Of a stretch of DNA of 35,140 nt, positions 7,588 to 25,248 are shown one piece after another. Position numbers and translations under genes: made by a program. Numbering within the stretch: position 1 is the stretch's first letter; each line of letters starts with the position of its first letter. The stretch comes from Synechococcus sp. AG-679-B05 (GTDB lineage: Bacteria > Cyanobacteriota > Cyanobacteriia > PCC-6307 > Cyanobiaceae), in contig QCUJ01000017.1 of assembly GCA_003210795.1 (NCBI GenBank), positions 1 through 35,140 on the forward strand, in the 5' to 3' direction. Below the pieces are notes generated by a model. The model did not search any database. It worked only from the letters and a program-made list of their open reading frames with translations, and was not told the DNA's origin.

Positions 7588-7593
7588 GGAGGT
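7588..7593 (+). promoter_or_regulatory. Shine-Dalgarno GGAGGT for sps, pointing to a CTG start
   Basis: A perfect GGAGGT ends 6 nt before the CTG at 7600. It lies inside the reading frame if the ATG at 7555 is used, and directly abuts the TTG at 7594, so CTG is the only initiation codon at ideal spacing. Confidence 0.65.
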
Positions 7594-7599
7594 TTGGAA

Positions 7600-9708
7600 C
7601 TGGGGATTCGTCTGCTGCATTTGCATCTTCACGGTCTGTTCCGATCCCGTGATCTTGAGCTCGGTCGTGATGCTGATACCGGTGGTCAGACGCTGTATGT
7701 GCTCGACCTGGTTCGCAGCCTGGCCCAACGCCAAGAGGTCGAGCAGGTTGATGTCGTTACCAGGCTGATTCAGGACCGTCGGGTTGATGTGTCCTACAGC
7801 CAGCCGGTTGAGATCATTGCCCCGGGTGCTCGCATTCTTCGCCTTCCCTTTGGCCCTAAGCGTTATCTCCGTAAGGAGCTGCTTTGGCCACATCTGGAGG
7901 ATCTGGCCGATCAGCTTGTGCAGCACCTCAGCCAACCTGGCCAGGGGGTCGACTGGATCCATGCCCACTACGCCGATGCAGGTTTTGTCGGTGCGCTGGT
8001 CAGTCAGAGATTGGGGATTCCCCTGGTCTTCACCGGTCATTCCCTGGGTCGAGAGAAGCAGCGGAGATTGATGGCCGGGGGATGTGATCGTGAGCAGATC
8101 GAACAGACCTATGCCGTCAGCCGCAGGATCGAAGCAGAGGAACAGGCCCTGGCCCAAGCCGATTTGGTGATCACCAGCACCCGTCAGGAAGCCGATCTCC
8201 AATACTGCCGTTATGGACAGTTTCGGCGGGAGCAGGCTGAGGTTGTTCCTCCCGGGGTTGATGCCACTCGGTTTCATCTGGTGGGATCCCCAGCGGAGAA
8301 GGCGGATCTGGATCAGCTGTTGAATCCATTTCTCAGGACTCCAAACAAGCCCCCTCTGCTTGCGATTTCGCGTGCGGTTCGCCGCAAGAACATTCCTGCA
8401 CTGGTGGATGCTTTTGGTCGATCAACCGTGTTGCGCAATCGCCATAACCTGGTGCTGGTCTTGGGATGTCGTGAGGATCCACGTCAGCTGGACAAACAGC
8501 AGCGCGATGTGTTCCAGCAGGTCTTTGATCTGGTGGATCGCCACAATCTTTACGGATCCGTTGCGTACCCCAAACAGCATCGGCGCTCCCAGGTGCCGTC
8601 GTTTTATCGATGGGCCGCCCAGCGAGGAGGTTTGTTCGTCAACCCAGCGTTGACCGAACCCTTCGGTCTCACGCTCCTGGAAGCCGCTGCCTGTGGCTTG
8701 CCGATGGTGTCGACCGATGACGGTGGGCCCCGCGATATTCAGGCTCGATGCGACAACGGATTACTAGTGGATGTCACCGATTCCGGTGCGCTTCAGGAGG
8801 CTCTGGAACGAGCCGGTAGGGATCCCAATCGCTGGCGAAGCTGGAGTGACAACGGGGTGGAAGCCGTCAGCCGCTATTTCAGTTGGGATGCCCATGTCTG
8901 TAGTTATCTCGCGCTGATGCAATCTCATCGGCGCGTTACAACTCAGCGTTCCCCCTTAAAGAGGTCTCGTCCGCAGCGTCTGCTGCTGCTTGATCTGGAC
9001 AGCAATCTGGAGCTTCCTAACGGTGCTGATTTGGCAGCGCTGCGAGCTCAGCTGACCCGTGACCGGGATCGTTACGGCCTTGGAATCTTTACGGGCCGCT
9101 CGCTGGCAGCTGCCCGACAGCGATACGCCGAGTTACACCTGCCGTTGCCGCAGGTGTGGATCAGTCGTGCCGGAAGTGAAATACACCATGGCGAACAGCT
9201 GCTGCTGGATTGCGATTGGCAGCAGCGGATTGATGTGGACTGGAATCGCGATGGGGTGTTGGCTGCCCTGGCCGATCTGCAAGATCAGCTCACATTGCAG
9301 GATCCTCCCCATCAGGGCCCCTGGAAGGTGAGCTTTCTGCTGCGGCAGCCGGACGAATCCCTGCTTGATCTGGTGCGTCAGCGGTTGCGCCGCGCGGGAT
9401 TGCAGGCCCAGCCTCTTTTGCGTTGCCACTGGTATCTGGATGTTCTTCCCCGTTTGGCATCCCGCAGCGAAGCGATTCGTCATCTCTCTCTGCACTGGCA
9501 GCTTCCGCTGGAGCGAGTGCTGCTCGTGGCTAGTCAGCAAGGGGATGCTGAATTGCTTCGTGGGATGCCCTCCGCGGTGGTACCTGCGGACCATGACCCC
9601 TGTCTCAGGCGTCAGCCCCAGCAACAGCGCGTGTTTTTCTCAACGCGCTCGAGCCTGGGGGGTGTGTTGGATGGCCTTAGCCACTTTCGTTTTCCCTCCA
9701 GCCGCTGA
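7600..9708 (+). CDS. sps: Sucrose-phosphate synthase with C-terminal HAD phosphatase-like domain
   Basis: Makes sucrose 6-phosphate from a nucleotide sugar and fructose 6-phosphate; sucrose is a compatible solute in these organisms. From the CTG at 7600 it is 702 aa. The N-terminal GT4 glycosyltransferase begins GIRLLHLHLHGLFR, with DADTGGQTLYVL, GHSLGREK and the donor-site segment EPFGLTLLEAAACG near residue 353. The HAD domain starts near residue 460: motif I is DLDSN (Asp465, Asp467), motif II is FTGRS, a lysine lies in WKVSF, and the motif IV region reads ASQQGDAEL (Ser645, Asp649). The first acidic residue of motif IV and the threonine of motif I are replaced, so phosphatase activity is doubtful. 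An ATG at 7555 would add 15 residues (MAAFVCCCGLFGGLE) with no Shine-Dalgarno. The gene converges on purT, 14 bp away. Confidence 0.9.
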   Translation: MGIRLLHLHLHGLFRSRDLELGRDADTGGQTLYVLDLVRSLAQRQEVEQVDVVTRLIQDRRVDVSYSQPVEIIAPGARILRLPFGPKRYLRKELLWPHLEDLADQLVQHLSQPGQGVDWIHAHYADAGFVGALVSQRLGIPLVFTGHSLGREKQRRLMAGGCDREQIEQTYAVSRRIEAEEQALAQADLVITSTRQEADLQYCRYGQFRREQAEVVPPGVDATRFHLVGSPAEKADLDQLLNPFLRTPNKPPLLAISRAVRRKNIPALVDAFGRSTVLRNRHNLVLVLGCREDPRQLDKQQRDVFQQVFDLVDRHNLYGSVAYPKQHRRSQVPSFYRWAAQRGGLFVNPALTEPFGLTLLEAAACGLPMVSTDDGGPRDIQARCDNGLLVDVTDSGALQEALERAGRDPNRWRSWSDNGVEAVSRYFSWDAHVCSYLALMQSHRRVTTQRSPLKRSRPQRLLLLDLDSNLELPNGADLAALRAQLTRDRDRYGLGIFTGRSLAAARQRYAELHLPLPQVWISRAGSEIHHGEQLLLDCDWQQRIDVDWNRDGVLAALADLQDQLTLQDPPHQGPWKVSFLLRQPDESLLDLVRQRLRRAGLQAQPLLRCHWYLDVLPRLASRSEAIRHLSLHWQLPLERVLLVASQQGDAELLRGMPSAVVPADHDPCLRRQPQQQRVFFSTRSSLGGVLDGLSHFRFPSSR

Positions 9709-9722
9709 TTGTCTGCCATTCA

Positions 9723-10889
9723 TCAGCCAGGCATCACCGTGATGGAGGCTGCGGCTCGATCGGCCTTGGCCCGAGCGGCGGTCACATCCGTGTCGCGGGC
9801 CAAGGCCACCCCCATGCGACGGCCGGGTCGGGCGTTGGGTTTCCCGAACAGCAGCACCTGCGTGTCTGCTTCTTTCAGGGCCTTTTCCAATCCCGTGTAA
9901 GTCACTGATGGCATCGATTCATCCGCCAGAATTACCCGGCTGGCTGATGCTGACGCCGTTGCAATTCCAGGGATCGGTAACCCCAGCACAGCGCGTATGT
10001 GAAGTTCGAATTCGCTCAGGTTCTGGCTGATCAGTGTCACCAGACCGGTGTCATGGGGGCGTGGTGACAACTCCGAGAAGATCACGTCGTCACCGCAGAG
10101 AAAGAACTCCACGCCGAACAGGCCTGCACCCCCAAGGTTGTCGGTCACGGTTCGGGCCATGGCCTGGGCCTTTTGCAACTGTTCCGCCGAGAGCTGAGCC
10201 GGTTGCCAGCTGCACTGGTAATCGCCATGTTCCTGTTCGTGACCGATCGGGGGGCAGAAAAGGGTCTCCCCGTTGCGTTGTTTCACGGTCAGCAAGGTGA
10301 TTTCCAGATCGAACCGCAGGAATTCCTCAACGATCACGCGGGGAGATGTGCCCCGGGCGCCTGCCATGGCGGCGTTCCAGGCGGCCTCAAGTTCTTCGGG
10401 TTCATTCACAACGCTCTGCCCCTTTCCCGAGGAGCTCATCACCGGTTTCACCACCACGGGCCAGCCGAGATCCGGAGCAACCCGGTGCAGCTCCTGGGCA
10501 CTGGCGGCGTAAGCGAAGCGCGCTGTTCGAAGCGATAGCTCCTGCGCGGCCAGGTCCCGGATCCGATCCCGGTTCATGGTCACAGCGGTCGCTCGGGCCG
10601 TTGGGATCACGGTGATGCCTTCCTCCTCCAGCTCCGCCAGGGCTGCTACAGCAAGGGCTTCAATCTCCGGGATCACCACGTCGGGTCGGTGGCGGCGCGC
10701 CACCTCCAGCAGGGCGCTGGCATCGGTCATCGGCAGCACCTCCACCTTGTCCGCAACCTGCATGGCGGGAGCACCCTCGTAGCGGTCGCAGGCGATAACT
10801 CTGCAGCCGAGCCGCTGGGCAGCGATAGCGACTTCTTTGCCCAGTTCACCGCTGCCCAGCAGCATCACAGTGCGCGGAAAACCGACCAT
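9723..10889 (-). CDS. purT: Formate-dependent phosphoribosylglycinamide formyltransferase (PurT)
   Basis: 388-aa ATP-grasp enzyme that formylates GAR using formate and ATP, the folate-independent third step of purine synthesis. The N-terminal nucleotide-binding segment is VMLLGSGELGKEV; the central ATP-grasp part has PVVVKPVMSSSGKGQS; the C-terminal signature is FSELSPRPHDTGLVTL. Length matches the family (about 390 aa). The start is ATG at 10889. It is separated by 84 bp from the upstream 55-aa gene on the same strand. The window also encodes PurU, which can supply formate for this reaction. Confidence 0.96.
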   Translation of the reverse strand: MVGFPRTVMLLGSGELGKEVAIAAQRLGCRVIACDRYEGAPAMQVADKVEVLPMTDASALLEVARRHRPDVVIPEIEALAVAALAELEEEGITVIPTARATAVTMNRDRIRDLAAQELSLRTARFAYAASAQELHRVAPDLGWPVVVKPVMSSSGKGQSVVNEPEELEAAWNAAMAGARGTSPRVIVEEFLRFDLEITLLTVKQRNGETLFCPPIGHEQEHGDYQCSWQPAQLSAEQLQKAQAMARTVTDNLGGAGLFGVEFFLCGDDVIFSELSPRPHDTGLVTLISQNLSEFELHIRAVLGLPIPGIATASASASRVILADESMPSVTYTGLEKALKEADTQVLLFGKPNARPGRRMGVALARDTDVTAARAKADRAAASITVMPG

Positions 10890-10973
10890 GCCTCACTTCA
10901 AATGAAGGTTGTCTCCATCATTGATCACACAGCTCCAGACGTTTGACGATGTCCAGCCCCGTAGGACAAGGGC

Positions 10974-11141
10974 TCAGTTCGATCTCGACTGACTCTGTCG
11001 GCGAATTTCTCCGATCAACCACACCCCCATGAAGCCGAGGGACGAGATTCCGAAGTAAATCAGCACCCAACGCAGAACCCGGTCTGGATCGGCGGCGGCA
11101 GCGGACAGCAGGTCTGCTGTTTTGGTGAGCACTGCGTCCAT
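10974..11141 (-). CDS. Small single-span membrane protein, 55 aa, unknown function
   Basis: Short frame starting at ATG 11141 and ending TGA at 10974-10976. It encodes a soluble alanine-rich start (MDAVLTKTADLLSAAAADP), one predicted transmembrane helix (WVLIYFGISSLGFMGVWLIG) and a basic tail (EIRRQSQSRSN), suggesting the C-terminus faces the cytoplasm. The start overlaps the stop of the 82-aa gene (ATGA), a strong sign that it is translated as the last gene of the mraY cluster. I do not recognise the family. Confidence 0.65.
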   Translation of the reverse strand: MDAVLTKTADLLSAAAADPDRVLRWVLIYFGISSLGFMGVWLIGEIRRQSQSRSN

Positions 11142-11389
11142 CAGGTGTCCAGATCCGGGATCAGTGTGAGCTGGCGAACAGGGGATTCTTCGCTGACGAA
11201 GCCCCAGGCTTCGAACACCGATGGATTCGGATGGGTGATGCGTTGTTGGTTGCCGTTGCGCTCGAGGTGGAAACCCTCTTCCGCCATGCGTCGCATCAGG
11301 CTTGCCGCCTCTTCAAACCGAGCCGCCATCGCCTCAAGGCTGGCGCAGTCCGTTGTGAGACCGGATTCCCGCCAGGTGAAATAGGTCAT
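11141..11389 (-). CDS. Conserved small soluble protein, 82 aa, unknown function
   Basis: The ATG at 11389 lies 4 nt after the mraY stop, and its TGA overlaps the next gene as ATGA. The protein begins MTYFTWRESGL and contains an amphipathic helix with ARFEEAASLMRRMAEEGF, then QQRITHPNPSVFEAWGFVSEE and a hydrophobic C-terminal strand (RQLTLIPD). It resembles a small protein I associate with cyanobacteria but cannot name. The same frame stays open back to 11548, but that part lies wholly inside mraY and is not protein-like, so the short version is preferred. Close coupling to mraY may mean a role near the envelope, which is inference only. Confidence 0.7.
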   Translation of the reverse strand: MTYFTWRESGLTTDCASLEAMAARFEEAASLMRRMAEEGFHLERNGNQQRITHPNPSVFEAWGFVSEESPVRQLTLIPDLDT

Positions 11390-11393
11390 GAAG

Positions 11394-12500
11394 TCAGCCC
11401 ATCGGTCGCAGCAGCAGCCCCAGCAGCACGCAGCCAGCTGTGACCAGCCAGAAGCATGGCACCACTGTGCGTTCACTGGTGCCTCCAAGTTCGAAGTGAT
11501 GGTGCAGGGGGGCCATGCGAAGGACTCGACGGCCCTGACCGTCAGCACCTTTGGTTGCCTTGAACACCCAAACCTGAACGATCACCGAAAGTGATTCCGC
11601 CAGGAACACTCCGCCCATCACCAGCAGGGGCCAGAGACTGTCCGACAGGAGAGCCACGGCAGTCAGGGCAGCGCCCATCGCAAGCGAACCGGTATCGCCC
11701 ATGAAGGCGTGGGCTGGATGACGGTTATGCAGTAAAAAACCGAGCCAGGCGCCTGCCATCGCCATGCAAAACCCTGCCAAGGCGGGGTCGCCATTGTTAC
11801 CGCGCAACATCAGCTGCAAGGCCAGTCCGGTGAACACCAGAGCTCCGCAACCGCTGGCAAGTCCATCGAGGCCATCGGTGAGGTTGGTGGCATTGCTCTC
11901 CGCCAGAAACACAAACAGGCCCAGCGGCCAGATCGCCAGGCCCAGCGGCAGAGACCAATGGAAGGGCAGGCTCACACTGGTGGAAATCCATCCCTGCCAG
12001 GCCGAAACCAACAGGAACGCCCCTCCTGCAGTGCCCTGCAACAGCAATTTGCCACGGGGTGTCAGGCCTTTGTTGGTCTTTTTGGTGAGACTGCTCCAGT
12101 CGTCAAAACCGCCGATCACCATGAAAGCCAGGGTGACCGCCGCCACGGCAAGCAACTGGTGGGAGGCGGTTCCCTCCACGCTGATCAAGCTGCCGAGCAC
12201 TGCTCCCACTGGCACCACCAGCAGTCCACCCATCGTTGGTGTTCCTGCCTTCGACTGATGTCCGCTCGGACCTTCCGTCCGGATGATCTGCCCCATTTTC
12301 AGGGCCTTCAACCGGGGGATCCCGATTGCTGCGACCAGGCCAGCGATGAACGTTGACACCAACAGCGTCAGCGTCAGCTGACTGTTGGGAATCCATTTGT
12401 CTGAAAGCAGGCTCGAGCCGAGAACAACCAGCGTCAGAGCGACGGCACTGACAGTCCCGTTGTGCCACCAAGGGCTCGGGCTCTGATTGGCGTCGCTCAC
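11394..12500 (-). CDS. mraY: Phospho-N-acetylmuramoyl-pentapeptide-transferase (MraY)
   Basis: 368-aa integral membrane enzyme that transfers phospho-MurNAc-pentapeptide to undecaprenyl phosphate, forming lipid I. It has multiple hydrophobic helices and all family motifs: [28 protein letters not shown] (aspartate pair), [15 protein letters not shown], the [13 protein letters not shown] motif and the histidine-rich [10 protein letters not shown]. The start is GTG at 12500 ([12 protein letters not shown]). It lies outside any dcw cluster, as is usual in cyanobacteria, and heads a tight three-gene run with two small proteins. Confidence 0.96.
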
Positions 12501-12525
12501 GGTTGAATCGTCGGTTGCTGGGACC

Positions 12526-12795
12526 TCAGTCCTCCCACTGTTCTTCGTTCTGTTCGTCGTCTTTGTTGTAATCCTCTTTCTCGCCCATCAATGCGGAGAG
12601 TTCCTCCTCTTCAACGGTGCTCACCTCGGTTGAGTCTGAATCTTCATCAGCCACAAGCCGTCCGCTGGCTTCAAGCCAGCTCAGCAGATCAGGCTCTTCC
12701 CTCAGCGGTAGAACCGGAGCTGGATCTTTCCGGCCGTAGCGCGTCAGTGAGGGATTGACGCTGTCCAGGGCATTCGTGTCGACCAGAGCGCTCAT
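12526..12795 (-). CDS. DUF3134 family protein
   Basis: 89-aa protein with the core [33 protein letters not shown] that marks the cyanobacterial DUF3134 family. The C-terminal third is very acidic ([21 protein letters not shown]). No membrane segment is seen and the function is unknown. The start is ATG at 12795. It lies 25 bp upstream of mraY on the same strand and is divergent from the small membrane protein before argG. Confidence 0.8.
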
Positions 12796-12823
12796 GCTTT
12801 ACCAGGACTCGGGGCAATCCTTC

Positions 12824-12829
12824 ACTATA
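12824..12829 (-). promoter_or_regulatory. Possible -10 box (TATAGT) for the DUF3134 gene
   Basis: On the minus strand TATAGT lies about 30 nt before the DUF3134 start, in the 74-bp divergent gap. On the plus strand the overlapping TATAAG (12826-12831) could serve the opposite gene. No good -35 is visible for either. Confidence 0.3.
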
Positions 12830-12869
12830 AGACATACACGACGGCTGACACTTGCGAAAGCTGACGTTG

Positions 12870-13082
12870 ATGGCCTCGGTTTGGGGAGCTTCACTTGCCA
12901 TCAGCGTCGGTCTACGTCGCTGGGGCGATCTGAGGCCTGAGCCTCTGCAGGCCAGCTGGCCTGTCGTGATGGTGGTGATGCTGCTTCCGCCACTGCTGAT
13001 GGCTGGCTGGCTGATTCTTTCCCAGGCCGGCATGGACCATGAGAGGAGAGAATCAGTCGATTCTGATCAGGAGACCCGTTGA
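12870..13082 (+). CDS. Small membrane protein upstream of argG, 70 aa, unknown function
   Basis: The frame starts at ATG 12870 ([12 protein letters not shown]); a TTG at 12852 would add six residues. It has a short hydrophobic N-terminus and one strong transmembrane helix ([23 protein letters not shown]), followed by a charged tail ([13 protein letters not shown]). The stop TGA overlaps the argG ATG by one base, so argG translation may depend on reading this ORF. No homologue is recognised. The coupling and the membrane composition support a real gene. Confidence 0.6.
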
Positions 13083-14293
13083 TGGGCCGTGCCAAGAAGG
13101 TGGTTCTTGCCTATTCCGGTGGGGTGGATACCAGCGTCTGCATTCCCTACCTGAAAGAGGAGTGGGCCGTCGAGGAGGTGATCACTTTCGCGGCTGATCT
13201 CGGTCAGGGCGATGAGTTGGAACCGATCCGTCAGAAGGCACTGGACGCGGGAGCTAGTCAGTCCCTGGTGGGCGATCTGATCAAACCCTTCATCGAGGAG
13301 TTCGCTTTTCCGGCGATCCGGGCCAATGCTCTCTACGAGGGGCGTTACCCCTTATCCACCGCTCTCGCCAGGCCGCTGATTGCTCGTCGATTGGTGGAAG
13401 TGGCCCGGGAGGTTGGCGCCGATGCCGTTGCCCATGGCTGTACCGGTAAGGGCAATGATCAGGTGCGTTTTGATGTGGCCATCGCATCCCTGGCTCCGGA
13501 TCTGAAGGTGCTGACACCTGCTCGCGAGTGGGGAATGAGCCGGGAGGAGACGATCGCCTATGGCGAGCGATGTGGAATTCCTGCACCAGTCAGTAAAAAG
13601 TCGCCCTATTCGATTGATCTCAATCTTCTGGGGCGAAGCATTGAGGCCGGTCCTCTGGAAGATCCGATGGTGCCTCCTCCGGAGGAGGTGTTCGCGATGA
13701 CTGCAGCCGTGGCGGATACGCCGGATGCTGCTGAGGAGATCGAGATTCGTTTTGAGGCCGGAAATCCTGTCGCCATCAACGGTGGGTCGCTTGATCCGGT
13801 GGCCATGATCCGTGAGGCTAACCGTCTGGCGGGAACCCACGGCATCGGACGCCTCGACATGATCGAGAACAGGGTTGTTGGGATCAAGTCACGGGAGATT
13901 TACGAAACGCCTGGCCTTCTCCTGTTGATTCAGGCTCATCAGGAGCTTGAGAGTCTCACGCTCGCGGCGGATGTGTTGCGCAGCAAACGTCAGCTTGAGA
14001 TGCAGTGGGCTGATCTCGTGTATCAGGGCCTCTGGTTCGGACCGCTCAAGGATGCCCTGGATGGGTTCATGGATCGCACCCAGCAGCATGTGAATGGTGT
14101 GGTGCGTTTGCGTCTCCACAAGGGTTCGGCCGCGGTGATCGGTCGTGCTTCCTTCGACAACAGCCTTTACGTTCCAGCGATGGCTTCCTATGGAAGCGAC
14201 GATCAGTTCGATCATCGAGCCGCTGAAGGCTTCATCTATGTGTGGGGTCTGCCGACCCGACTCTGGGCAGCATCCCAGCGCCGTTCAGGCTGA
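13082..14293 (+). CDS. argG: Argininosuccinate synthase
   Basis: 403-aa enzyme joining citrulline and aspartate with ATP, the penultimate step of arginine synthesis. The N-terminal PP-loop is [12 protein letters not shown] (residues about 9-20). Further family segments are [13 protein letters not shown], the serine-rich [15 protein letters not shown] and [20 protein letters not shown]. The start is ATG at 13082, overlapping the upstream stop; a TTG one codon earlier is possible but unnecessary. The final 9 bp overlap the convergent coiled-coil gene. Confidence 0.97.
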
Positions 14294-14641
14294 ATCCCGG
14301 CGCAGCAGATGCGGCCATCGCAACCGACCCAGCTGGATCACTTTGCTCCGCTGGGATTCGGACGATATGTCATCCCCAGGTGGCAGGGCTGGAGGGCGCG
14401 TTCCATCCGCGTTCAGTCCCTGTTCCAGCAGGCGATAGCGATCCAGCAACGGTTCGAGCCGCTGTTGAAATTTGCGCTCGAACAGATCGGGTAAGTCTTC
14501 AAGCAAACTTTCGTAGGCGCTGATCTGGCCTTCGAGCGCTTCGATCCTGCCCAGTAACTGGTCTCGATCATCGGATCTGGATGAATGACCTGACCACCAC
14601 GGCTGTTCTGGGGTCGGTTGAGATTGATCCGGGTGGTCCAT
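14285..14641 (-). CDS. Coiled-coil hypothetical protein, 118 aa
   Basis: The protein has a proline/serine-rich N-terminus ([17 protein letters not shown]), a helical heptad-like region ([33 protein letters not shown] is coiled-coil-like in pattern) and a basic C-terminus. The function is unknown and no domain is recognised. The gene lies 41 bp downstream of rpsF, and its start codon sits inside a perfect 12-bp hairpin, so access of ribosomes may be controlled. The 3' end overlaps argG by 9 bp on the opposite strand. Confidence 0.65.
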
Positions 14642-14669
14642 TGGCAGACGCTATAGCCTGCCAATGGAC
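14636..14669 (-). promoter_or_regulatory. Perfect 12-bp inverted repeat enclosing the start codon of the 118-aa gene
   Basis: The arms GTCCATTGGCAG (14636-14647) and CTGCCAATGGAC (14658-14669) are exact reverse complements, separated by a 10-nt loop that contains GCTATAGC. The ATG (14641-14639 on the minus strand) is within one arm. The element begins 14 nt after the rpsF stop. No T-run follows, so a translation-control hairpin or a protein-binding palindrome seems likelier than a terminator. Confidence 0.6.
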
Positions 14670-14682
14670 TGAACAACTGCCT

Positions 14683-15048
14683 TCAGGAGGCGGGTGAGGG
14701 TTCTTCTTGCCGAGCAGGTTCACTACCGGGCACAACACGAGGGGCGGGCAAAGGACCTTCCTGCTTAACCGTCAGGTAACGGATCACGTCCTCGCTCAGT
14801 CGCATGGCCTTCTCCAGCACGGCCACTTGCTGACCGTCGCCGTTATGGCTCAGCTGCACGTAGATGCCTTCTTTGTGCTTGTTGATCGGATAGGCCAAAC
14901 GGCGCTTGCCGCGCATCTGGTTGTCGAGTATCTCGGCACCTGTCTCCACAAGCATGTCGCGGTACTTGAGCAGATGGCTTTCCACTTCCTCCTCCGGGAT
15001 GTCCGGACGGAGGATGTACATAGTCTCGTAATAGGGATCGTGTGTCAT
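14683..15048 (-). CDS. rpsF: 30S ribosomal protein S6
   Basis: 121-aa small-subunit protein that binds 16S rRNA with S18. The first strand [18 protein letters not shown] and the segments [20 protein letters not shown] and [17 protein letters not shown] are typical, and a proline/glutamate-rich tail follows. The start chosen is ATG at 15048 (MTHDPYYE), where S6 proteins normally begin. A GTG at 15099 has a better Shine-Dalgarno (GGGAG, 5-nt spacing) and would add 17 residues, so the start is not settled. Upstream is the Tic20-like gene on the same strand. Confidence 0.93.
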
Positions 15049-15124
15049 GGGTACCGACAGGGTCTTCAGGCTCACCGTGATGAGCGCCGGATTGGTCACC
15101 TTATCTCCCGACAGTTCCCTTCAC

Positions 15125-15601: not shown

Positions 15602-15625
15602 AACCCTTCCGAAACTCAACTGAAA

Positions 15626-16495: not shown

Positions 16496-16539
16496 GGGGT
16501 CCCTGGAGTGCCCTTCCAGCCTGCCTGTTCGGGAACCCC
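16496..16539 (-). promoter_or_regulatory. Nested hairpin directly before the aroE start codon
   Basis: Read on the minus strand, GGGGTTCCC and GGGACCCC form an 8-bp stem with one bulged T. An inner CTGGA/TCCAG stem lies between them, and the last base of the outer stem touches the ATG. The AGGGA that could act as ribosome-binding site is in the paired part. It could be a translation-control structure for aroE. Confidence 0.4.
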
Positions 16540-16595
16540 ACCTCGCCTGTGCCGGGGTTGGCTGATGAAGATGAGCTCACTCAATTCACACTTTC

Positions 16596-16603
16596 AGGAG
16601 GTG
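16596..16603 (+). promoter_or_regulatory. Strong Shine-Dalgarno of dnaK
   Basis: AGGAGGTG lies 7 nt before the dnaK ATG and is the longest match to the 16S tail that I noticed in this window, fitting an abundant protein. No CIRCE element is seen in the 115-bp gap. Confidence 0.8.
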
Positions 16604-16610
16604 GGCACAG

Positions 16611-18527: not shown

Positions 18528-18550
18528 TCCGCTGAGTTCATGGCGATTGC

Positions 18551-18576
18551 AAAGGGGCCCTAACGGGCCCTTTTTT
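18551..18576 (+). terminator. Rho-independent terminator after dnaK
   Basis: The stem GGGCCC-TAAC-GGGCCC (18555-18570) is extended by A/T pairs and followed by TTTTTT. The A-run before the stem means it could also act for the convergent oxidoreductase gene whose stop is at 18576-18578. Confidence 0.85.
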
Positions 18577-19646
18577 CATGGCTCCTGGAGTGCGGTTGAA
18601 ACCCACTCCGCCGTGGCAGGTGCAAGAAGAACACCATTGCGATAGTGACCACTCGCCACGATCAGCCCTGGTTCCAGTACGTCCAACAAGGGTGCTGGTC
18701 GATCCACCGGTCGGGCCCGCAAGCCACTCCAATGCTCGATCACCCGGGCGCTGCGCAGCCATTCCGGTGCGCTGTCATTGAGAGAACGCATCAGAGCCAG
18801 GGGATTGTCCGCAGCGTCGGTTCCGGGTTCCACCGTTGCTCCAAGCAACAGGCGTCCCGGTCCATCAGGGATCAGGTTGAAGCTCTGATCGACCAGAACA
18901 GCCGGCCATTGCATCCAGGTTGACGGACCTTCCCTCAATTGCAGGGTGAGGGCTTGTCCGAGCACTGGACTGATCGGAAGGCTGTGACCAAGAGGCTCCA
19001 GCAGCGCTCCAGCGCTCAGCCCCGAGCAGATCACCACGCTGTCGTGGCAGGTGCTGCCTCCTATGGCGTGATGCAGCCGCCAACGGGAGCCATTGCGCTC
19101 TAGCTGCTCCACACGGGTTGCCACGGGTTGAACGCTTTCCTGGAGCAGTGCTCGCCTTAAAGCGATTTGAAGCCGCAGTGGGTCGACACGACCATCTGCC
19201 CTTGAGTGCAGTGCACCGTGCAGTGCGGTTGGCCAGATCGTGCGGACCTGGTCGCTCGTCTTCAGTTCCAGGCCCAGATCTTTGCGTTGCTCGGCGAGGG
19301 CCCCCATCCGTGCCGCCGCATCTCGATCGGCAGCAATCTGCAGCAGCCCCGTTTGCAAGGTGAGGCAGGTCTCGAATGCCTGAAGGGCCTTCACCCATCG
19401 GGGCCAGAGCTGCATGCTGCGGCGGCGTAAACGCCAGCCACGACCACTTGTGCGGCGGAACACATGTCCCATCAACACGCCGAGGGATGCGCTGGTGCCG
19501 TTGAGTTCAGACTCTGAAGACTGCCTCTGTACCGGTTGATCCCAGCGAGGATCCAAAAGAGTGACGGAATGGCCCTTGAGGGCTAGTTCCCATGCTGAGC
19601 CGAGGCCTACAGCTCCGGCACCAACGATTGCGACGGATCGGGTCAG
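18576..19646 (-). CDS. FAD-dependent oxidoreductase, glycine oxidase/ThiO-like, with apparent CTG start
   Basis: 356 aa when read from CTG at 19646. The sequence TRSVAIVGAGAVGLGSAWELALKGHSVTLLD forms the Rossmann FAD-binding motif and lies upstream of the first conventional start (TTG 19556, at LDPRWD). A protein from TTG would therefore lack its FAD site. Later segments include HSRADGRVDPLRL, VICSGLSAGALL and the C-terminal GHYRNGVLLAPAT seen in ThiO-type glycine oxidases, which make the iminoacetate used for thiazole synthesis; other amino-acid oxidases of the family remain possible. The CTG overlaps the psbQ stop as CTGA, with GAGG 7 nt upstream. It is convergent with dnaK. Confidence 0.8.
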   Translation of the reverse strand: MTRSVAIVGAGAVGLGSAWELALKGHSVTLLDPRWDQPVQRQSSESELNGTSASLGVLMGHVFRRTSGRGWRLRRRSMQLWPRWVKALQAFETCLTLQTGLLQIAADRDAAARMGALAEQRKDLGLELKTSDQVRTIWPTALHGALHSRADGRVDPLRLQIALRRALLQESVQPVATRVEQLERNGSRWRLHHAIGGSTCHDSVVICSGLSAGALLEPLGHSLPISPVLGQALTLQLREGPSTWMQWPAVLVDQSFNLIPDGPGRLLLGATVEPGTDAADNPLALMRSLNDSAPEWLRSARVIEHWSGLRARPVDRPAPLLDVLEPGLIVASGHYRNGVLLAPATAEWVSTALQEP

Positions 19647-20077
19647 CTGAGGGCCTCGTCCGGGATCACTTCTGAATAAGCCTCGAAACCAGCGGCTACA
19701 GCGCTGTAGGAGCGTTGCAGTCGGGAGCTGTCCTGCAGACGGGCGGCCTCATCAAGATTGGCCAGTGCAGCCTTGAGGTCCCGGGCGATCGATTCAGCCT
19801 CCTTGCGGTGGGATTTGTCGAGTCGTTGGTTGATGTAGAGCATTTCGCGACCCACCTCCTGCATCGGCCCGTGGATCAGGTTCCGAGTGAATGTCCAGTC
19901 TTCGATGCTCACCAGGCGGGCCAGTTCAGGGAGACGGCTCTTCGTCTCTTCAAAGGCCGCGGCCTGACGTGCAATAACCGCCGCGTCGTCCGCTTTGACG
20001 GCGGCAGGCGTGATCAAACCCAGGCTCAGGGTGATGCAGAGGCAGAACGCGGCGAGGCGGCGCAGGGCCTTCAGCAT
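19643..20077 (-). CDS. psbQ: Photosystem II extrinsic protein CyanoQ (PsbQ)
   Basis: 144-aa lumenal PSII subunit. It has a signal peptide (MLKALRRLAAFCLCITLSLG, then cleavage around AVKA-DDAA) and a helical mature domain with the family segment DWTFTRNLIHGPMQEVGREMLYI followed by regularly spaced helices ending YSEVIPDEALS. The usual CyanoQ lipobox cysteine is not seen at the cleavage site, so it may be a soluble rather than lipidated lumenal protein. The start is ATG at 20077; the open frame extends upstream to 20449, but that part is antisense to purU. The stop overlaps the CTG start of the oxidoreductase. Confidence 0.9.
   Translation of the reverse strand: MLKALRRLAAFCLCITLSLGLITPAAVKADDAAVIARQAAAFEETKSRLPELARLVSIEDWTFTRNLIHGPMQEVGREMLYINQRLDKSHRKEAESIARDLKAALANLDEAARLQDSSRLQRSYSAVAAGFEAYSEVIPDEALS
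19654..19657 (-). promoter_or_regulatory. Shine-Dalgarno GAGG for the oxidoreductase CTG start
   Basis: GAGG within the psbQ 3' end lies 7 nt before the CTG at 19646, the same spacing as at the radical SAM gene. Confidence 0.5.
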
Positions 20078-20149
20078 GATCCGAAAAAAAATATCTGGGA
20101 CTTTAACCAGCCCACAGGACGCGGGAGAATTTGTTTTTAATGCTTCGTT

Positions 20150-21004
20150 GTGAGTGAGGCCACGGTCATCCTCCAGATGATCTGTCCGGATCGGCCCGGG
20201 CTGGTGAGTGAGTTGGCGGGCTGGGTGGCAGCCAATGGCGGCAACATCCGCCATGCCGATCACCACACCGATGTGGGGGCTGGTTTGTTCCTCAGCAGGA
20301 TCGAATGGCAGTTGATGGGTTTCGGTATTCCACGCGAGGCCATCGCAGCTGCGATAACAGCGTTGGGGGAACGCTTGAACGCTCAGGTCCAGCTGCGTTT
20401 TTCGGATGAGCTGCCGCGGGTTGCCATTTTGGCCAGCAAACAGAGCCACTGTTTACAGGATTTGCTCCTGCGTGTGCAAAGCGGTGAGCTGCCGATGCAA
20501 GTGCCGCTCGTCATCGCCAATCATCCCGAGCTGGAGGGGCTCTGCCGTGCATTCGAGGTGCCGTTTATGCACGTTCCCGTATTGCCGGATCGCAAGCCGG
20601 AGGCCGAGCAGCAGATCCTTGATCTCTTGGTTGAGCATCGGATTGAACTGGCGGTTCTGGCCAAATACATGCAGGTGCTGAGTTCAGACTTTCTGGATCG
20701 CTTCCCTGAGGTGATCAATATTCACCACTCGTTTCTGCCGGCTTTTAAAGGTGCTCAGCCTTATCACCGCGCCTGGGAGCGAGGCGTCAAGTTGATTGGC
20801 GCCACTGCCCACTACGTCACCGAGGATCTCGACGACGGCCCGATCATTGAGCAGACCACAGTGCATGTCAGTCATCGCGATGAGGTGGAGGATCTGATTC
20901 GCAAAGGCCGTGATACGGAACGGCTGGCACTGGCCCGAGCTCTGCGGTTGCATCTGCGCAGGCAGGTGATGGTTTATCGGGGCCGCACCGCGGTGTTTGC
21001 GTGA
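20150..21004 (+). CDS. purU: Formyltetrahydrofolate deformylase
   Basis: 284-aa hydrolase splitting 10-formyl-THF into formate and THF, which balances one-carbon pools and supplies formate to PurT. The N-terminal ACT domain (ILQMICPDRPGLVSELAGW, residues about 6-80) is followed by the formyltransferase fold with IELAVLAKYMQVLS, the catalytic INIHHSFLPAFKGA and YVTEDLDDGPIIEQ. The start is GTG at 20150 (MSEATVIL). It is divergent from psbQ across 72 bp. The stop overlaps the next gene as GTGA. Confidence 0.95.
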   Translation: MSEATVILQMICPDRPGLVSELAGWVAANGGNIRHADHHTDVGAGLFLSRIEWQLMGFGIPREAIAAAITALGERLNAQVQLRFSDELPRVAILASKQSHCLQDLLLRVQSGELPMQVPLVIANHPELEGLCRAFEVPFMHVPVLPDRKPEAEQQILDLLVEHRIELAVLAKYMQVLSSDFLDRFPEVINIHHSFLPAFKGAQPYHRAWERGVKLIGATAHYVTEDLDDGPIIEQTTVHVSHRDEVEDLIRKGRDTERLALARALRLHLRRQVMVYRGRTAVFA

Positions 21005-22263
21005 TCGGTGCGCGGCTTTTTCGGATTGGGTTGCTTCTGTTGCCCTCCAGTGCACTGTTGGGAGGGCTGTGTCTGTTGGCGGCTGCAGTCAGCGGTAGCC
21101 GAGACAGGCCAGTGCCGATCTGGCGTGATCGCTGGTGTCAGCCCCTCCTGCTGGCGGGTGCGCTGATGCTGATTGGGGCGCTCCAGGCCCACACGGGTGC
21201 TTTGGCCTGGGCGGGTCTAGGCAACTGGTTGCCGTTGATCTGGGCGTTCTGGGCCTTTCAGCCGTATCTGATAACGGAGAGTCAGCGACGCGATGCTGCC
21301 TGGATGCTGGTGGCCGGAACGCTGCCGGTGCTGCTCACCGGTTTTGGCCAGATGTTTCTCGGTTGGGAGGGACCATGGCAGTTGGGTGGCGAAGCGGTCG
21401 TCTGGTTTGTTGCACCCGGTGGGAAGCCCGTCGGGCGTTTATCTGCCCTGTTTGATTACGCCAATGTCGCGGGAGCCTGGCTGGGGGTGATCTGGCCTCT
21501 GATGATTGCGGCAGTGCTGCGTCCCGATGGATGGCGGCGCCGTGGTGCTGCGCTGGTGCTGGCGCTGGCAGTCGGCATGGCGGTGCTGCTGACCCAGTCG
21601 AGAAATGCCATGGGTGGCCTTGCCCTGGCTTTGCCTCTGGTGATCGGCCCTGCCCGCTGGATCTGGCTTCTGCCGTTCATGCTGCTGGTGAGCTCACCGC
21701 TGCTGATGGTTGTGCTCCCGGGCATTCCCCCTGGCCTGCGCCAGGGTGCGATGACTTTGTTGCCGGACTCGATCCTCGAGCGATTGCTGCAGCGCGAAGG
21801 GGAGACGGCTTGGAAGCACACCCGCCTGGGGCAGTGGACCTACGCCATTCAGTTAGTGGCTGCTAGGCCCTGGTTGGGCTGGGGTTCGGCGGCTTTCAGC
21901 GTGATGTATCCGATCTATGTCTCCAAGCGTTGGCATGGGCACTCCCACAATCTGCCGCTGGAGTTAGCAATCAGCCATGGAGTGCCCGTGGCGCTGCTCA
22001 TAACAGGCACCGTGCTGGCCCTATTGGTGCTGGCGCTTCGGCGCGGCATCCTTCAGCAGGCCCCTCTGGAGAGGGCGTGGTGGACTTCGGCGTTGGTGCT
22101 GTTGACGATGCACTTCACCGATCTGCCCTTCTTTGATGCCCGGTTGAACCTGCTTGGCTGGATCCTGCTGGCCGGACTTTGCGCCTTTATTCGGCATCCC
22201 CAGCCAGCGCAAGAGCCTGATCGTGGTGATCCCGCAGACGGTCTGGTTTCAACGGCCCCCTGA
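21001..22263 (+). CDS. O-antigen ligase/polymerase-like membrane protein
   Basis: 420-aa protein with about ten or more hydrophobic helices. It carries the Wzy/WaaL-type features RLSALFDYANVAGAWLGV, the arginine-bearing LLTQSRNAMGGL, a large loop with TRLGQWTYAIQLVAARPWLGWG and the HGHSHNLPLELAISHGV motif. Members ligate or polymerise lipid-linked glycans in the periplasmic leaflet; cyanobacterial relatives include IctB, whose bicarbonate role is disputed. The substrate cannot be told. The GTG start overlaps the purU stop (GTGA), and its last 77 bp overlap the convergent radical SAM gene. Confidence 0.85.
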   Translation: MIGARLFRIGLLLLPSSALLGGLCLLAAAVSGSRDRPVPIWRDRWCQPLLLAGALMLIGALQAHTGALAWAGLGNWLPLIWAFWAFQPYLITESQRRDAAWMLVAGTLPVLLTGFGQMFLGWEGPWQLGGEAVVWFVAPGGKPVGRLSALFDYANVAGAWLGVIWPLMIAAVLRPDGWRRRGAALVLALAVGMAVLLTQSRNAMGGLALALPLVIGPARWIWLLPFMLLVSSPLLMVVLPGIPPGLRQGAMTLLPDSILERLLQREGETAWKHTRLGQWTYAIQLVAARPWLGWGSAAFSVMYPIYVSKRWHGHSHNLPLELAISHGVPVALLITGTVLALLVLALRRGILQQAPLERAWWTSALVLLTMHFTDLPFFDARLNLLGWILLAGLCAFIRHPQPAQEPDRGDPADGLVSTAP

Positions 22264-23827
22264 GGTGGCACCACGGCAGTGTGCGTTTGCCGTCCCATGA
22301 CTCCTGGGTCACCTCTGCCCATGGTGGTGGGTTTGGAAGCTCGGGCCCCGGCATTGGCTCCAGTTCTCCGTTGAGAGCTGCGCGGTAGGTCTTTTTCCAA
22401 CCTCCCATGCTTTCGCGGCCCTCTCCGACGGCAGCAATCACCGGCGCAAGTCGTCGGTCGCTGCGCGACAGCAGCGCCTGGATCACACTCCAGCCATAGC
22501 TTTCGGGTCGGAAATCGATGCCCTTGGGTTTGAGACGTTTGGCCAGTCGCTTCAGCCGTTTTTCGGCCTCAGGCCTGACGCCTTGCCATTGAAACGGTGT
22601 CTGTGCCTTCGGAACGAACGTGCTGACGCCGAGGGTGAAGCGCAGGCCAGGTGTCCCTTTTTTCAATGTCAGGAGTAGGTCGGCGGTGGCTTCCACATCT
22701 GCATCGGTTTCCGTCGGCAGGCCGACCATTCCGTAAAGCTTGAGCCCTGAGAGGCCGCCTTGTTTGGCATGTCGTGCTGCCTCATGGATTGCCTCGGTGG
22801 TGAGTTTTTTGTTCACCACCTCCCGCATTCGTTCGCTGCCGCTTTCGATCGCGATCGTGAGTGACCTGCTGCCGCGTTTGGCAAGAATCCTTCCCAGTTC
22901 GGGCGTCACAGTTGCGGCGCGAACAGAGCTGACACTCACGCGGGTGTCATCAAAACGATCCTGATTCAGCCACTGCAGCAGATCACTGAATTGGGGGTGC
23001 TGGGTCACCGAGGCTCCGAGCAGGCCCAGACGCCGGGTGGCCTTCAGGCCTTTTTCCACGGCTGGAATCAAGCCGTCGTCGAGGGAGGAGGTACGGAACG
23101 GCAAGGTGAGATAGCTCGCCAGGCAAAAGCGGCAAAGTTCTGGACAGCTGCGCACCACCTCCACCATGTGGATGTCTGGCCAGGCCGCGTCCGGCGTGAC
23201 CACGGTGGAATGGCTGAGGGTGTTCCCCCGCCAGGTTTGCTTTTCCACCAGGGCAGGGACGTCTGAATCCACCGGCTCCACACCAATCAGCGTTCCCGTC
23301 GCGTCGTATCGCGGGATATAGAGGCTGGGCACGTAGACCCCCTCCACCATTGCCAGTCGTCGCAGGCGTTCGGGCCGTGATGCATTGCGGCATTGCTGCA
23401 GGGCATCGATGAAGGCACCGAGCAGCAGTTCACCGTCGCCCAGCAATACAGCATCAAAAAATGGTGCCAAGGGTTCAGGGTTGGCGGTGAGAACTGGTCC
23501 GCCACCAAAAACGATCGGATCGTCATCGCCACGGTTTTCGGCCCAGATCGGAATGTTCTGGTTCTGCAGCAGCTCAGGAAGGACAGGTCCATCCAGCTCC
23601 CAGCTCAGAGAGAGTCCGAACAGATCGCAGCGTCGTGGCAACGGATCTCCCTGGTCGGTGAACAACCGGCGCACGTCCACATCGCTGCGCTGGGCCAGGG
23701 TCGCCCACACGATCTGATAACCCAGGCTGGTAATGCCAACGGAATACGTGCTGGGAAAGGCCAGAACGGCCTTGAGAGCATCGTTGTCCGGCTGGGCCGG
23801 ATCGAACAGCAGCGTTTCCTGATTCAG
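22187..23827 (-). CDS. B12-binding-type radical SAM protein with apparent CTG start
   Basis: 546 aa from CTG at 23827. The first 39 residues (NQETLLFDPAQPDND, then AVLAFPSTYSVGITSLGYQI) contain the first strand and loop of the cobalamin-binding-like domain, and precede the only conventional start, GTG at 23710. The radical SAM cluster motif is C228, C232, C235 (SCPELCRFC), followed by LGLLGASVTQHPQF, the strand IAIESGSERMREVV and GLKLYGMVGLPTETDADV. It resembles uncharacterised radical SAM proteins with an N-terminal B12-binding region; no reaction can be assigned. AGGAG lies 7 nt before CTG, which overlaps the clc stop as CTGA, so the two are probably co-translated. Confidence 0.8.
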   Translation of the reverse strand: MNQETLLFDPAQPDNDALKAVLAFPSTYSVGITSLGYQIVWATLAQRSDVDVRRLFTDQGDPLPRRCDLFGLSLSWELDGPVLPELLQNQNIPIWAENRGDDDPIVFGGGPVLTANPEPLAPFFDAVLLGDGELLLGAFIDALQQCRNASRPERLRRLAMVEGVYVPSLYIPRYDATGTLIGVEPVDSDVPALVEKQTWRGNTLSHSTVVTPDAAWPDIHMVEVVRSCPELCRFCLASYLTLPFRTSSLDDGLIPAVEKGLKATRRLGLLGASVTQHPQFSDLLQWLNQDRFDDTRVSVSSVRAATVTPELGRILAKRGSRSLTIAIESGSERMREVVNKKLTTEAIHEAARHAKQGGLSGLKLYGMVGLPTETDADVEATADLLLTLKKGTPGLRFTLGVSTFVPKAQTPFQWQGVRPEAEKRLKRLAKRLKPKGIDFRPESYGWSVIQALLSRSDRRLAPVIAAVGEGRESMGGWKKTYRAALNGELEPMPGPELPNPPPWAEVTQESWDGKRTLPWCHLRGPLKPDRLRDHHDQALALAGDAE

Positions 23828-25248
23828 CTGAGGTCTCCTGGGGAGGACTGTGGGGGGGTCGGCGGGTTGAACGGCCGGCGGTGACGGTTGAGTTGTTTTT
23901 CCATTCGCTCCTCGGAATCCAGTTCCATCCCCATCTGACGTTCGTAGATCGAATGGGGGTGAAAGAGCCTTGCCACTACGAAGCTCGTCAGGCAGGCCAC
24001 CAGGATTGGTTTGAGGATCAACAGATCCTTGGTGAGGGCGAAGGCCAGAAACATCGCTGAAATTGGCGTGCGCGAGCAGCCGGCTACGAAAGCTCCCATG
24101 CCTGCAAAGACATAGGTGGTTGGCACATGGCCCGTGAGGGCTTCGACACCAGTGCCGCAGGCCAGGCCTATGGCTCCTCCCAGCGTCAGCATTGGCATGA
24201 ACAGTCCACCGGGTGCCCCTGATCCAGCCGCCAGGCCTGTGCAGAAAAACAAGACCACAAAGCTTGACAGCGCAAGGCTGATGTCGGCTTCGCCGGCTCC
24301 GATCAGATGTTTGAGTTCACTGGGGTTATGGAAGGTGTCGGGCAGCGCGGCGTAGACGCACCCCAGCACAACGCCACTGAGGGTCATCCGCAGGATGAGT
24401 CGGTCACCGAACCAATGGCTGCCCTGGCGCTGCATGGTGAGCACGTATCGGGTGTAGAGCTCCGCCAGCACACCCACCACCACTCCCAGGGCGATCAGGT
24501 AGATCAGGTCGATCGGAAGGAAGCGAACCAGTGGGGTGTACTCCCTCTCCAGCTGGAAGCCGATGGTGCTGCTGAGACCGCCTCCACCCATCACATCGGC
24601 CCAGGTGTCGGCGGAGAACGTGGTGATCAGCACCAGCAGCAGCACCACTGGCCGAGCTGAATGGAGCAGTTCCTCGATCGCATAGATGAAGCCACCGATG
24701 GGTGCACTGAATACAGCCGCGATGCCGGCACCACCGCCAGCGGCGACGATCACGCGGCGGAACGCCACTGGTGCTTTCAACCAGCGCGACATCTTCCAGG
24801 CCACTGACCCCCCCATCTGTACCGCTGGTCCCTCAGGTCCAAGCGGAAATCCAGAGCCGATGGCGATGATCCCGGCGACCAGCTTCACCAGCCCCACCCG
24901 CAAACCCATCGGCACCGGTCGGTGCCGGAGAAAGCCCATGATGTGAGTGATACCGGCGCCACCGGCTGCCGGTGACAAACGGGTCACCAGCCAGGCCGAG
25001 AGCATCCCGCCGAAGCCGCCGAGGGCCGGCAACACCACCCAGGCCGGCAGTTCATCGAGCAGGTCGAGCCGCCAATCCCGCAGCAGGTTGATCCCACTGG
25101 TGAACAGAAGCCCTGTGATGGCCGCGCCCAGACCGGTCAGTGACAGAGCCAGCACCACCACCAGCCAGCGGCGCTCCAGCATTCGCTGGATGCTGCGGCT
25201 GGAGCCGAGAAGGTGGCGGCGTTTTTTTGGTTCGCTTAAAGAGGGCAC
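23824..25248 (-). CDS. CLC-family chloride/anion channel or antiporter
   Basis: 474-aa multi-span membrane protein. The conserved anion-pathway segments are GAGIT (97-101, in place of GSGIP), GPEGP (137-141, with gating Glu139 kept), the AIEEL pair (Glu192/Glu193, the proton-site position) and GLFMP (348-352). Both the gate and proton glutamates are present, so an H+/anion exchanger is likelier than a channel. No C-terminal CBS domains are present. The start is GTG at 25248. The gene follows acnB by 12 bp and overlaps the radical SAM gene. Confidence 0.9.
   Translation of the reverse strand: MPSLSEPKKRRHLLGSSRSIQRMLERRWLVVVLALSLTGLGAAITGLLFTSGINLLRDWRLDLLDELPAWVVLPALGGFGGMLSAWLVTRLSPAAGGAGITHIMGFLRHRPVPMGLRVGLVKLVAGIIAIGSGFPLGPEGPAVQMGGSVAWKMSRWLKAPVAFRRVIVAAGGGAGIAAVFSAPIGGFIYAIEELLHSARPVVLLLVLITTFSADTWADVMGGGGLSSTIGFQLEREYTPLVRFLPIDLIYLIALGVVVGVLAELYTRYVLTMQRQGSHWFGDRLILRMTLSGVVLGCVYAALPDTFHNPSELKHLIGAGEADISLALSSFVVLFFCTGLAAGSGAPGGLFMPMLTLGGAIGLACGTGVEALTGHVPTTYVFAGMGAFVAGCSRTPISAMFLAFALTKDLLILKPILVACLTSFVVARLFHPHSIYERQMGMELDSEERMEKQLNRHRRPFNPPTPPQSSPGDLS
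23835..23839 (-). promoter_or_regulatory. Shine-Dalgarno AGGAG for the radical SAM CTG start
   Basis: AGGAG within the last codons of clc ends 7 nt before the CTG at 23827. No ATG, GTG or TTG in that frame lies nearby. Confidence 0.65.

What the first reader, a model, noticed from the sequence alone, without database searches (positions are those of the whole stretch)
7588..23840. Recurrent CTG initiation with a common junction 9-mer
Three of about 28 genes look CTG-started, well above the very low frequency reported in model bacteria. Two share the junction CTCAGCTGA with the Shine-Dalgarno exactly 7 nt upstream. Together with TGATG, ATGA and GTGA junctions nearby, CTGA seems to be a fourth kind of stop/start coupling here. 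It could lower downstream expression, depend on terminating ribosomes, or reflect relaxed start-codon choice in this lineage.
Basis: inference. Interest (0 to 1): 0.7.

Follow-up and report, generated by a model that had tools for sequence, protein, structure and literature searches.

The report
Conserved CTG start codons in picocyanobacteria
A few genes in marine Synechococcus and related cyanobacteria begin with the very rare start codon CTG, and one of them has kept it in nearly every family member examined, which points to a weak start kept by selection rather than to an error.

Summary
The FAD-oxidoreductase (DAO) gene at 19646 and the radical-SAM gene at 23827 are CTG-started; sucrose-phosphate synthase (SPS) at 7600 very probably is.

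In the genus the start is CTG in 30 of 30 DAO and 30 of 30 radical-SAM loci. In 80 loci of other genera of the family, radical SAM has CTG in 78, one TTG, one ATG, including AT-rich genomes where CTG is 2-12% of that gene's Leu codons. In one locus an in-frame stop touches the CTG. None of 96 Leu-invariant columns in the gene bodies keeps one codon.

A scan of 316 ortholog groups found one more case, a chorismate-lyase-like gene (29 of 29 CTG), and only 3 CTG groups in all.

The 9-mer is unremarkable: C precedes 517 of 911 TGA stops. The CTGA overlap with its Shine-Dalgarno is real in the genus, but radical SAM keeps CTG where both are absent.

Best reading: a few genes keep CTG as a weak start that caps expression. 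The start is well supported by sequence; the expression effect is inferred.

The parts
23825..23827 (-). CTG start codon of the radical-SAM gene, overlapping the TGA stop of the CLC channel gene (CTGA 23827-23824)
   Evidence: CTG in 30 of 30 genus loci and 78 of 80 other-genus loci read
23835..23839 (-). Shine-Dalgarno AGGAG, 7 nt before the CTG
   Evidence: SD in 25 of 26 genus loci with overlap, 0 of 4 without
22187..23827 (-). radical-SAM protein gene (546 codons from CTG)
   Evidence: Pfam PF19864, PF04055; best NCBIfam model TIGR03960, B12-binding radical SAM, below cut-off (260 of 462 bits)
23824..25248 (-). upstream CLC chloride channel gene
   Evidence: PF00654
19644..19646 (-). CTG start codon of the DAO gene, overlapping the psbQ stop (CTGA 19646-19643)
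   Evidence: CTG in 30 of 30 genus loci
19654..19657 (-). Shine-Dalgarno GAGG inside psbQ, 7 nt before the CTG
   Evidence: SD in 30 of 30 genus loci
18576..19646 (-). FAD-dependent oxidoreductase (DAO, ThiO-like) gene
   Evidence: PF01266; TIGR02352 below cut-off (156 of 251 bits)
19643..20449 (-). psbQ open frame (listed start GTG; the PsbQ profile begins at residue 129)
   Evidence: TIGR03042 above cut-off
7600..7602 (+). probable CTG start codon of sucrose-phosphate synthase
   Evidence: CTG in G000, G030, G002; ATG at the same position in 23 of 30 loci
7588..7592 (+). Shine-Dalgarno GGAGG, 7 nt before the CTG
7600..9708 (+). sucrose-phosphate synthase gene
   Evidence: TIGR02472, TIGR02471 above cut-offs

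Best explanation
CTG is a genuine fourth start codon used by a small fixed set of genes in this cyanobacterial family. Shown from sequence: translation of radical SAM, DAO and a chorismate-lyase-like gene begins at a CTG that is conserved while ordinary Leu codons in the same genes drift, and at the overlaps CTG is kept although a synonymous C-to-T change would give TTG. Inferred: ordinary initiator tRNA reads CUG in the ribosomal P site, initiation is inefficient, and selection keeps it so to hold these enzymes at a low level. In the genus the CTG mostly sits on the stop codon of the upstream gene with a Shine-Dalgarno inside that gene, so terminating ribosomes probably re-initiate there at a low, fixed ratio (for example a little DAO from psbQ mRNA). 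Where overlap and Shine-Dalgarno are absent, initiation must be de novo. SPS is a recent, local change from ATG to CTG.
For: (1) Start codon CTG: DAO 30/30, radical SAM 30/30, chorismate lyase 29/29 genus loci. Radical SAM in other genera of the family: 19 of 20 (TTG in L113) and 59 of 60 (ATG in L297). (2) In many loci hardly any other start is possible: an in-frame stop lies 0-2 codons before the CTG in 11 of the 60 loci, touching it in L325. (3) 0 of 96 Leu-invariant columns in the three gene bodies keep one codon. In 20 family loci the best of 36 such columns has 13 CTG, against 19 at the start; in six AT-rich loci CTG is 2-12% of the gene's Leu codons. (4) The last sense codon of the upstream gene varies (AGC, AAC, CTC, CAC, CGC, TGC, TTC) but ends in C at all 83 overlapping junctions. 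All-C columns are 7 of 27, 3 of 37 and 2 of 12 of the pyrimidine-only columns, product about 0.0035. (5) Conserved codons with SD at coding boundaries of the 52 groups without a shared canonical start: CTG 3, AAC 1, CCG 1. (6) In 25 of 26 loci of other cyanobacterial families the alignment begins at the fourth residue (L226 at the first), and 24 of 26 have ATG/GTG/TTG within 8 codons upstream, so this N-terminal region is truly coding. (7) An initiator-type tRNA-Met is present.
Against: No N-terminal peptide, ribosome profile or reporter supports initiation at CTG or a low yield; a published GUS reporter gave no expression from CUG in tobacco chloroplasts or E. coli (PMC9845219, passages). The loci share ancestry: radical SAM is probably one ancient CTG event inherited many times, and the pyrimidine-column test is not tree-corrected. 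SD was part of how the CTG cases were found, so their high SD rate is biased. DAO outside the genus is mixed: of 17 matched loci, CTG was assigned in 8 (6 convincing), ATG in 3, neither in 6. One TTG and one ATG at the radical-SAM start show the constraint is not absolute.
Confidence: 0.72

Rival explanations
1. Neutral leftover: CTG is merely tolerated in low-expressed genes, and its persistence is inheritance plus base composition and overlap constraint, with no function.
For: C is the commonest base before TGA stops (517 of 911). Only 3 of 316 groups are affected. One locus uses TTG and one ATG instead.
Against: CTG persists in AT-rich genomes where it is 2-12% of the gene's Leu codons, without overlap in 17 of 20 other-genus loci, and no T appears at the synonymous site of 83 overlapping junctions in three genes.
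Confidence: 0.2
2. CTGA is a dedicated coupling element: CUG works only because terminating ribosomes at the overlapping UGA re-initiate there.
For: Overlap with an upstream frame of more than 60 codons in 30/30 DAO, 26/30 radical SAM and 27/29 chorismate lyase genus loci. SD inside the upstream gene in 25 of 26 overlapping radical-SAM loci against 0 of 4 without overlap. The coupling literature says cyanobacteria use SD more for re-initiation than de novo (PMC6728339, passages).
Against: Radical SAM keeps CTG without such overlap in 4 of 30 genus loci and 17 of 20 other-genus loci. The AT-rich DAO loci with a convincing CTG (L115, L119, L122, L129) have no upstream frame over 40 codons. SPS has no overlap.
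Confidence: 0.12
3. Relaxed start-codon choice: the initiation machinery of this lineage accepts CTG generally.
For: SPS has CTG in the clade of the window where most relatives have ATG. The window genome is in only 52 of 316 groups and the mixed-column list missed SPS, so local swaps in it are under-counted.
Against: None of the nine mixed canonical/CTG columns listed is a clear swap (by eye: a canonical codon stands within nine codons in groups 8, 92, 187 and 190; the rest are undecided). Initiator tRNA has the usual three G-C pairs in the anticodon stem, and IF3 of four relatives is ATG-started.
Confidence: 0.07
4. The CTG is an ordinary Leu codon: the true start is upstream and non-canonical, or the frame is entered by frameshifting from the upstream gene, or it is a base-call error.
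For: The open frame extends upstream in some loci (163 codons in the window for radical SAM).
Against: In-frame stops 0-2 codons upstream in 11 of 60 loci. No overlapping upstream frame over 60 codons in 17 of 20 other-genus loci. Leu synonyms are not used at this position in any of 89 genus loci of three genes. Identical in independent genomes.
Confidence: 0.02

Closest known systems
Conserved AUA/AUU start codons of S. aureus infC, cvfC1, ccpN (PMC13009471, passages seen)
   Same: Starts outside ATG/GTG/TTG conserved among relatives; ccpN conserved between S. aureus and B. subtilis. Reported reporter yield about 10% of AUG in poor medium (ccpN up to 30% in rich medium). SD-assisted.
   Different: CTG instead of AUA/AUU; genes of enzymes rather than regulators. 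For radical SAM the SD is mostly lacking outside the genus. No measured effect here. IF3 itself starts with ATG in four relatives.
ATGA / TGATG overlaps with termination-reinitiation (PMC6728339, abstract and passages)
   Same: 4-nt stop/start overlap with SD inside the upstream gene.
   Different: CTG in the start position; the CTG persists without the overlap. The string CTGA is not in the main text of that paper.
Sporadic CUG starts in bacteria (PMC5622118; PMC9845219; passages)
   Same: CUG as start codon.
   Different: There CUG is a very rare switch: 2 of 61,358 ancestral AUG, 1 of 5,080 GUG, 1 of 2,468 UUG; 20 ORFs (0.024%) in 69 model genomes. Here it is fixed in orthologues across a family.
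CTG among start codons in Nostoc proteogenomics (PMC8557916, passages)
   Same: A cyanobacterial study listing CTG among typical initiation codons.
   Different: The two passages seen name no CTG gene and no conservation; its own non-canonical cases are ATA/ATT.

Membership tests
Conserved non-canonical start codon acting as attenuator | start codon outside ATG/GTG/TTG conserved in orthologues | tested here: met
   DAO 30/30, radical SAM 30/30 plus 78/80, chorismate lyase 29/29
Conserved non-canonical start codon acting as attenuator | no usable canonical start in frame | tested here: met
   DAO and radical SAM: first canonical codon 30 and 39 codons downstream in the window; in-frame stops 0-2 codons upstream in 11 of 60 radical-SAM loci. 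Not met cleanly for SPS (ATG 7555, TTG 7594 in frame)
Conserved non-canonical start codon acting as attenuator | strong Shine-Dalgarno at the site | tested here: inconclusive
   radical SAM 25 of 30 in genus, 0 of 20 and 4 of 60 in other genera
Conserved non-canonical start codon acting as attenuator | lower yield than with AUG | not testable with these tools
   needs a reporter
Conserved non-canonical start codon acting as attenuator | IF3 gene itself rare-started (autoregulation, as in the S. aureus paper) | tested here: not met
   infC of G029, G007, G006, G001 starts with ATG; no IF3 hit in the incomplete window genome
Stop/start overlap coupling (ATGA type) | start codon overlaps the upstream stop by 4 nt | tested here: met
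   in the genus for DAO 30/30, radical SAM 26/30, chorismate lyase 27/29. Not met for SPS, nor for radical SAM in 17 of the 19 other-genus CTG loci
Stop/start overlap coupling (ATGA type) | downstream translation depends on upstream translation | not testable with these tools
   needs an experiment
Lineage-wide relaxed start choice | CTG interchanges with ATG/GTG/TTG across many genes | tested here: inconclusive
   3 conserved CTG groups of 316 and no clear mixed column among the relatives; but the list missed SPS and the window genome is in only 52 groups

The most novel reading that the evidence does not exclude
Picocyanobacteria keep a small regulon of genes under CTG starts as a deliberate translational brake, retained since early in the family and even through strong AT enrichment. 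Its output could be tuned together by initiation fidelity (IF3, ribosome state), and in one genus it is wired into stop/start overlaps so that the brake sets a fixed ratio to the upstream gene.
Probability: 0.3. Interest if true: 0.85.

Novelty: new variant of a known kind. Interest (0 to 1): 0.66.

Why it matters
CUG is regarded as an almost unused bacterial start. A CTG start kept in 108 of 110 examined radical-SAM loci of one family shows that a near-cognate start can be a long-lived gene feature. It also means that gene callers limited to ATG/GTG/TTG (recalled, not checked here) would truncate these proteins in marine cyanobacteria. And it offers a direct test of whether start-codon identity is an expression dial under selection.

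Tried and rejected
Pairwise scans of stop-to-stop frames were swamped by off-frame ORFs. A first multi-genome score mis-set the coding boundary when frames were long and missed radical SAM; searches replaced it. Apparent non-CTG starts (groups 143, 165, 130) resolved to ATG/GTG starts on reading the proteins; group 204 was left open. CTG columns without SD (groups 26, 162, 201) have canonical codons in frame nearby and were dropped. In one search, nine groups had a conserved CTG with SD near the boundary; six were dropped because a canonical codon stands within six codons. One row (L312) was read on the wrong strand and corrected. The mixed-column list did not flag SPS, so it under-counts local swaps. 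An Rfam scan of the window and six AT-rich loci gave no match at the gathering scores. The genome-contig scan returned a single locus, useful only to name the lineage. Literature searches: no listed paper (titles and abstract openings seen; in 60 only 20 of 449 and in 63 only 10 of 33 hits were listed) reports a conserved CTG start in cyanobacteria. That library lacks most subscription journals, and one relevant paper (all-64-codon measurements) is not held.
Full report
Lineage. The window is contig C17 of a 1.88-Mb, 77%-complete genome. The nearest named contig found is an uncultured Synechococcus MAG, 88% identical over DAO.

Observation. All three CTG sites are present with a 7-nt spacer to GGAGG, GAGG and AGGAG. 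The shared 9-mer means little: it occurs 51 times in the genome as held, and C precedes 517 of 911 TGA stops of the grouped genes. Per stop, CTGA hosts an assigned start far less often (12 of 517) than ATGA (82 of 153) or GTGA (13 of 94), and somewhat less than TTGA (8 of 147) (numerators, denominators).

Orthologues in the genus. Thirty DAO loci (of 32 genomes with an orthologue-level hit; the other two were not fetched) all have CTG on the psbQ stop. Thirty radical-SAM loci (again of 32) all have CTG. In 26 it overlaps the stop of an upstream frame of more than 60 codons, in the window the CLC gene. Four loci have neither overlap nor SD, and still CTG. SPS: CTG in the window genome and the two nearest relatives, ATG at the same place in 23 of 30 loci, ATG two codons upstream in 4.

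Beyond the genus. One search found radical SAM in 106 family genomes outside the genus; I read 80. CTG in 19 of 20 (TTG in one) and 59 of 60 (ATG in one); 26 were not read. Outside the family, 26 loci show a different N-terminus, and 24 of them have ATG/GTG/TTG within 8 codons upstream of the aligned position. So the CTG start probably arose at or near the base of the family and stayed. For DAO outside the genus, one search matched 17 of 20 loci: six have a convincing CTG (L115, L118, L119, L122, L124, L129), two a doubtful one, three ATG, and six neither.

Is it the start? In 11 of 60 loci an in-frame stop stands 0-2 codons before the CTG, and in L325 it touches it. Gene-body leucines use mixed codons: none of 96 Leu-invariant columns has a single codon across the genus. 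Across 20 family loci the most CTG-rich of 36 such columns has 13 of 20, while the start has 19 of 20. In the AT-rich loci L114, L115, L119, L122, L126 and L129 CTG is 5, 7, 12, 2, 7 and 6% of the gene's Leu codons. An ordinary leucine, a frameshift product or a sequencing error does not explain this.

Is CTG kept against TTG? The base in question is the third base of the upstream gene's last codon. That codon varies (psbQ AGC 24, AAC 6; upstream of radical SAM AGC 13, CTC 4, AAC 4, CGC 2, CAC, TGC, TNC; upstream of chorismate lyase TTC 26, CAC 1) but always ends in C, although T would be synonymous and give TTG. Pyrimidine-only columns that are all C are 7 of 27, 3 of 37 and 2 of 12 in the three upstream genes, a joint chance near 0.0035 without tree correction. 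This supports selection for CTG but does not prove it.

How common? I grouped 316 conserved coding ORFs (each in at least 3 of 5 genomes) from 400 kb each of four relatives plus 435 kb of the window genome and located coding boundaries from substitution patterns. The window genome is in 52 of the groups. A shared canonical start lies at the boundary in 264; 52 lack one. Among those 52 the conserved codons with SD are CTG 3, AAC 1, CCG 1. The three are DAO, radical SAM and a chorismate-lyase-like gene (PF01947), the last CTG in 29 of 29 genus loci. Without the SD requirement a conserved CTG is found 6 times against 2.1 expected, but the additional three have canonical codons in frame nearby. 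Start codons counted as genome-by-gene cells: ATG 664, GTG 219, TTG 108, CTG 16. The relatives' regions lie at the ends of their contigs, chosen for shared gene order, and may not represent the genome. Local swaps are under-counted: SPS was not flagged.

Shine-Dalgarno. SD (4-11 nt) precedes canonical starts in 28 of 100 NTGA overlaps, 11 of 47 TGATG/TAATG overlaps and 113 of 845 others. CTG sites in the genus: DAO 30 of 30, radical SAM 25 of 30, chorismate lyase 26 of 29. Part of this is ascertainment, since SD helped find them. Outside the genus radical SAM has SD in 0 of 20 and 4 of 60. So SD goes with the overlap, in line with published statements on cyanobacteria (PMC6728339, passages), and not with the CTG.

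Machinery. The initiator-type tRNA-Met has the usual GGG/CCC anticodon stem (sequence). IF3 of four relatives is 217 aa and ATG-started; none was found in the incomplete window genome. IF3 residues were not examined.

Mechanism. Shown: CTG is where translation of these genes begins, as far as sequence can show. Inferred: inefficient initiation by initiator tRNA at CUG limits expression and selection keeps it. The closest measured parallel is the set of conserved AUA/AUU starts in S. aureus, which gave about 10% of the AUG yield in poor medium (PMC13009471, passages). A GUS reporter gave no expression from CUG in chloroplasts or E. coli (PMC9845219, passages), which shows how weak the codon can be and is also a caution: use of CUG may need features of this lineage that I did not identify. 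CUG switches are otherwise very rare (PMC5622118, passage).

Verdict. It is gene-specific, deeply conserved CTG initiation.

Noticed in passing
G000 genome-wide; C3:47211-47220: CTCAGCTGA (its last eight bases are the palindrome TCAGCTGA) occurs 51 times against 3 for the reversed control pattern. At C3:47211 a 521-codon open frame ends at the 9-mer, with GGAGG upstream of the CTG and a 41-codon frame after it.
   Followed up: partly
window 19643-20449: The psbQ open frame has 268 codons but the PsbQ profile begins at residue 129, so the listed GTG start may be far too early or the protein has a long N-terminal extension.
   Followed up: no
L086-L089 (G008, G023, G026, G020): Sucrose-phosphate synthase matches end near query residue 463-477, short of the C-terminal phosphatase domain of the window protein; in G013 and G027 the match falls into several pieces.
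   Followed up: no
L113 and L297: The exceptions in the radical-SAM gene: L113 starts with TTG on the stop of a 481-codon frame (TTGA overlap), L297 with ATG.
   Followed up: partly
radical-SAM codon 4: Codon 4 is GAA rather than GAG in most loci, also in many from GC-rich genomes, which may reflect selection for an A-rich, open start region. Not counted against background codon usage.
   Followed up: no
group 204 (G029:C1:42126-43283): No ATG/GTG/TTG near the conserved N-terminus (GLTLPVWVAAAAKA) in four genomes, and no clear CTG with SD; the start is unresolved. The gene looks like cobalamin-biosynthesis cbiD by recall only.
   Followed up: no
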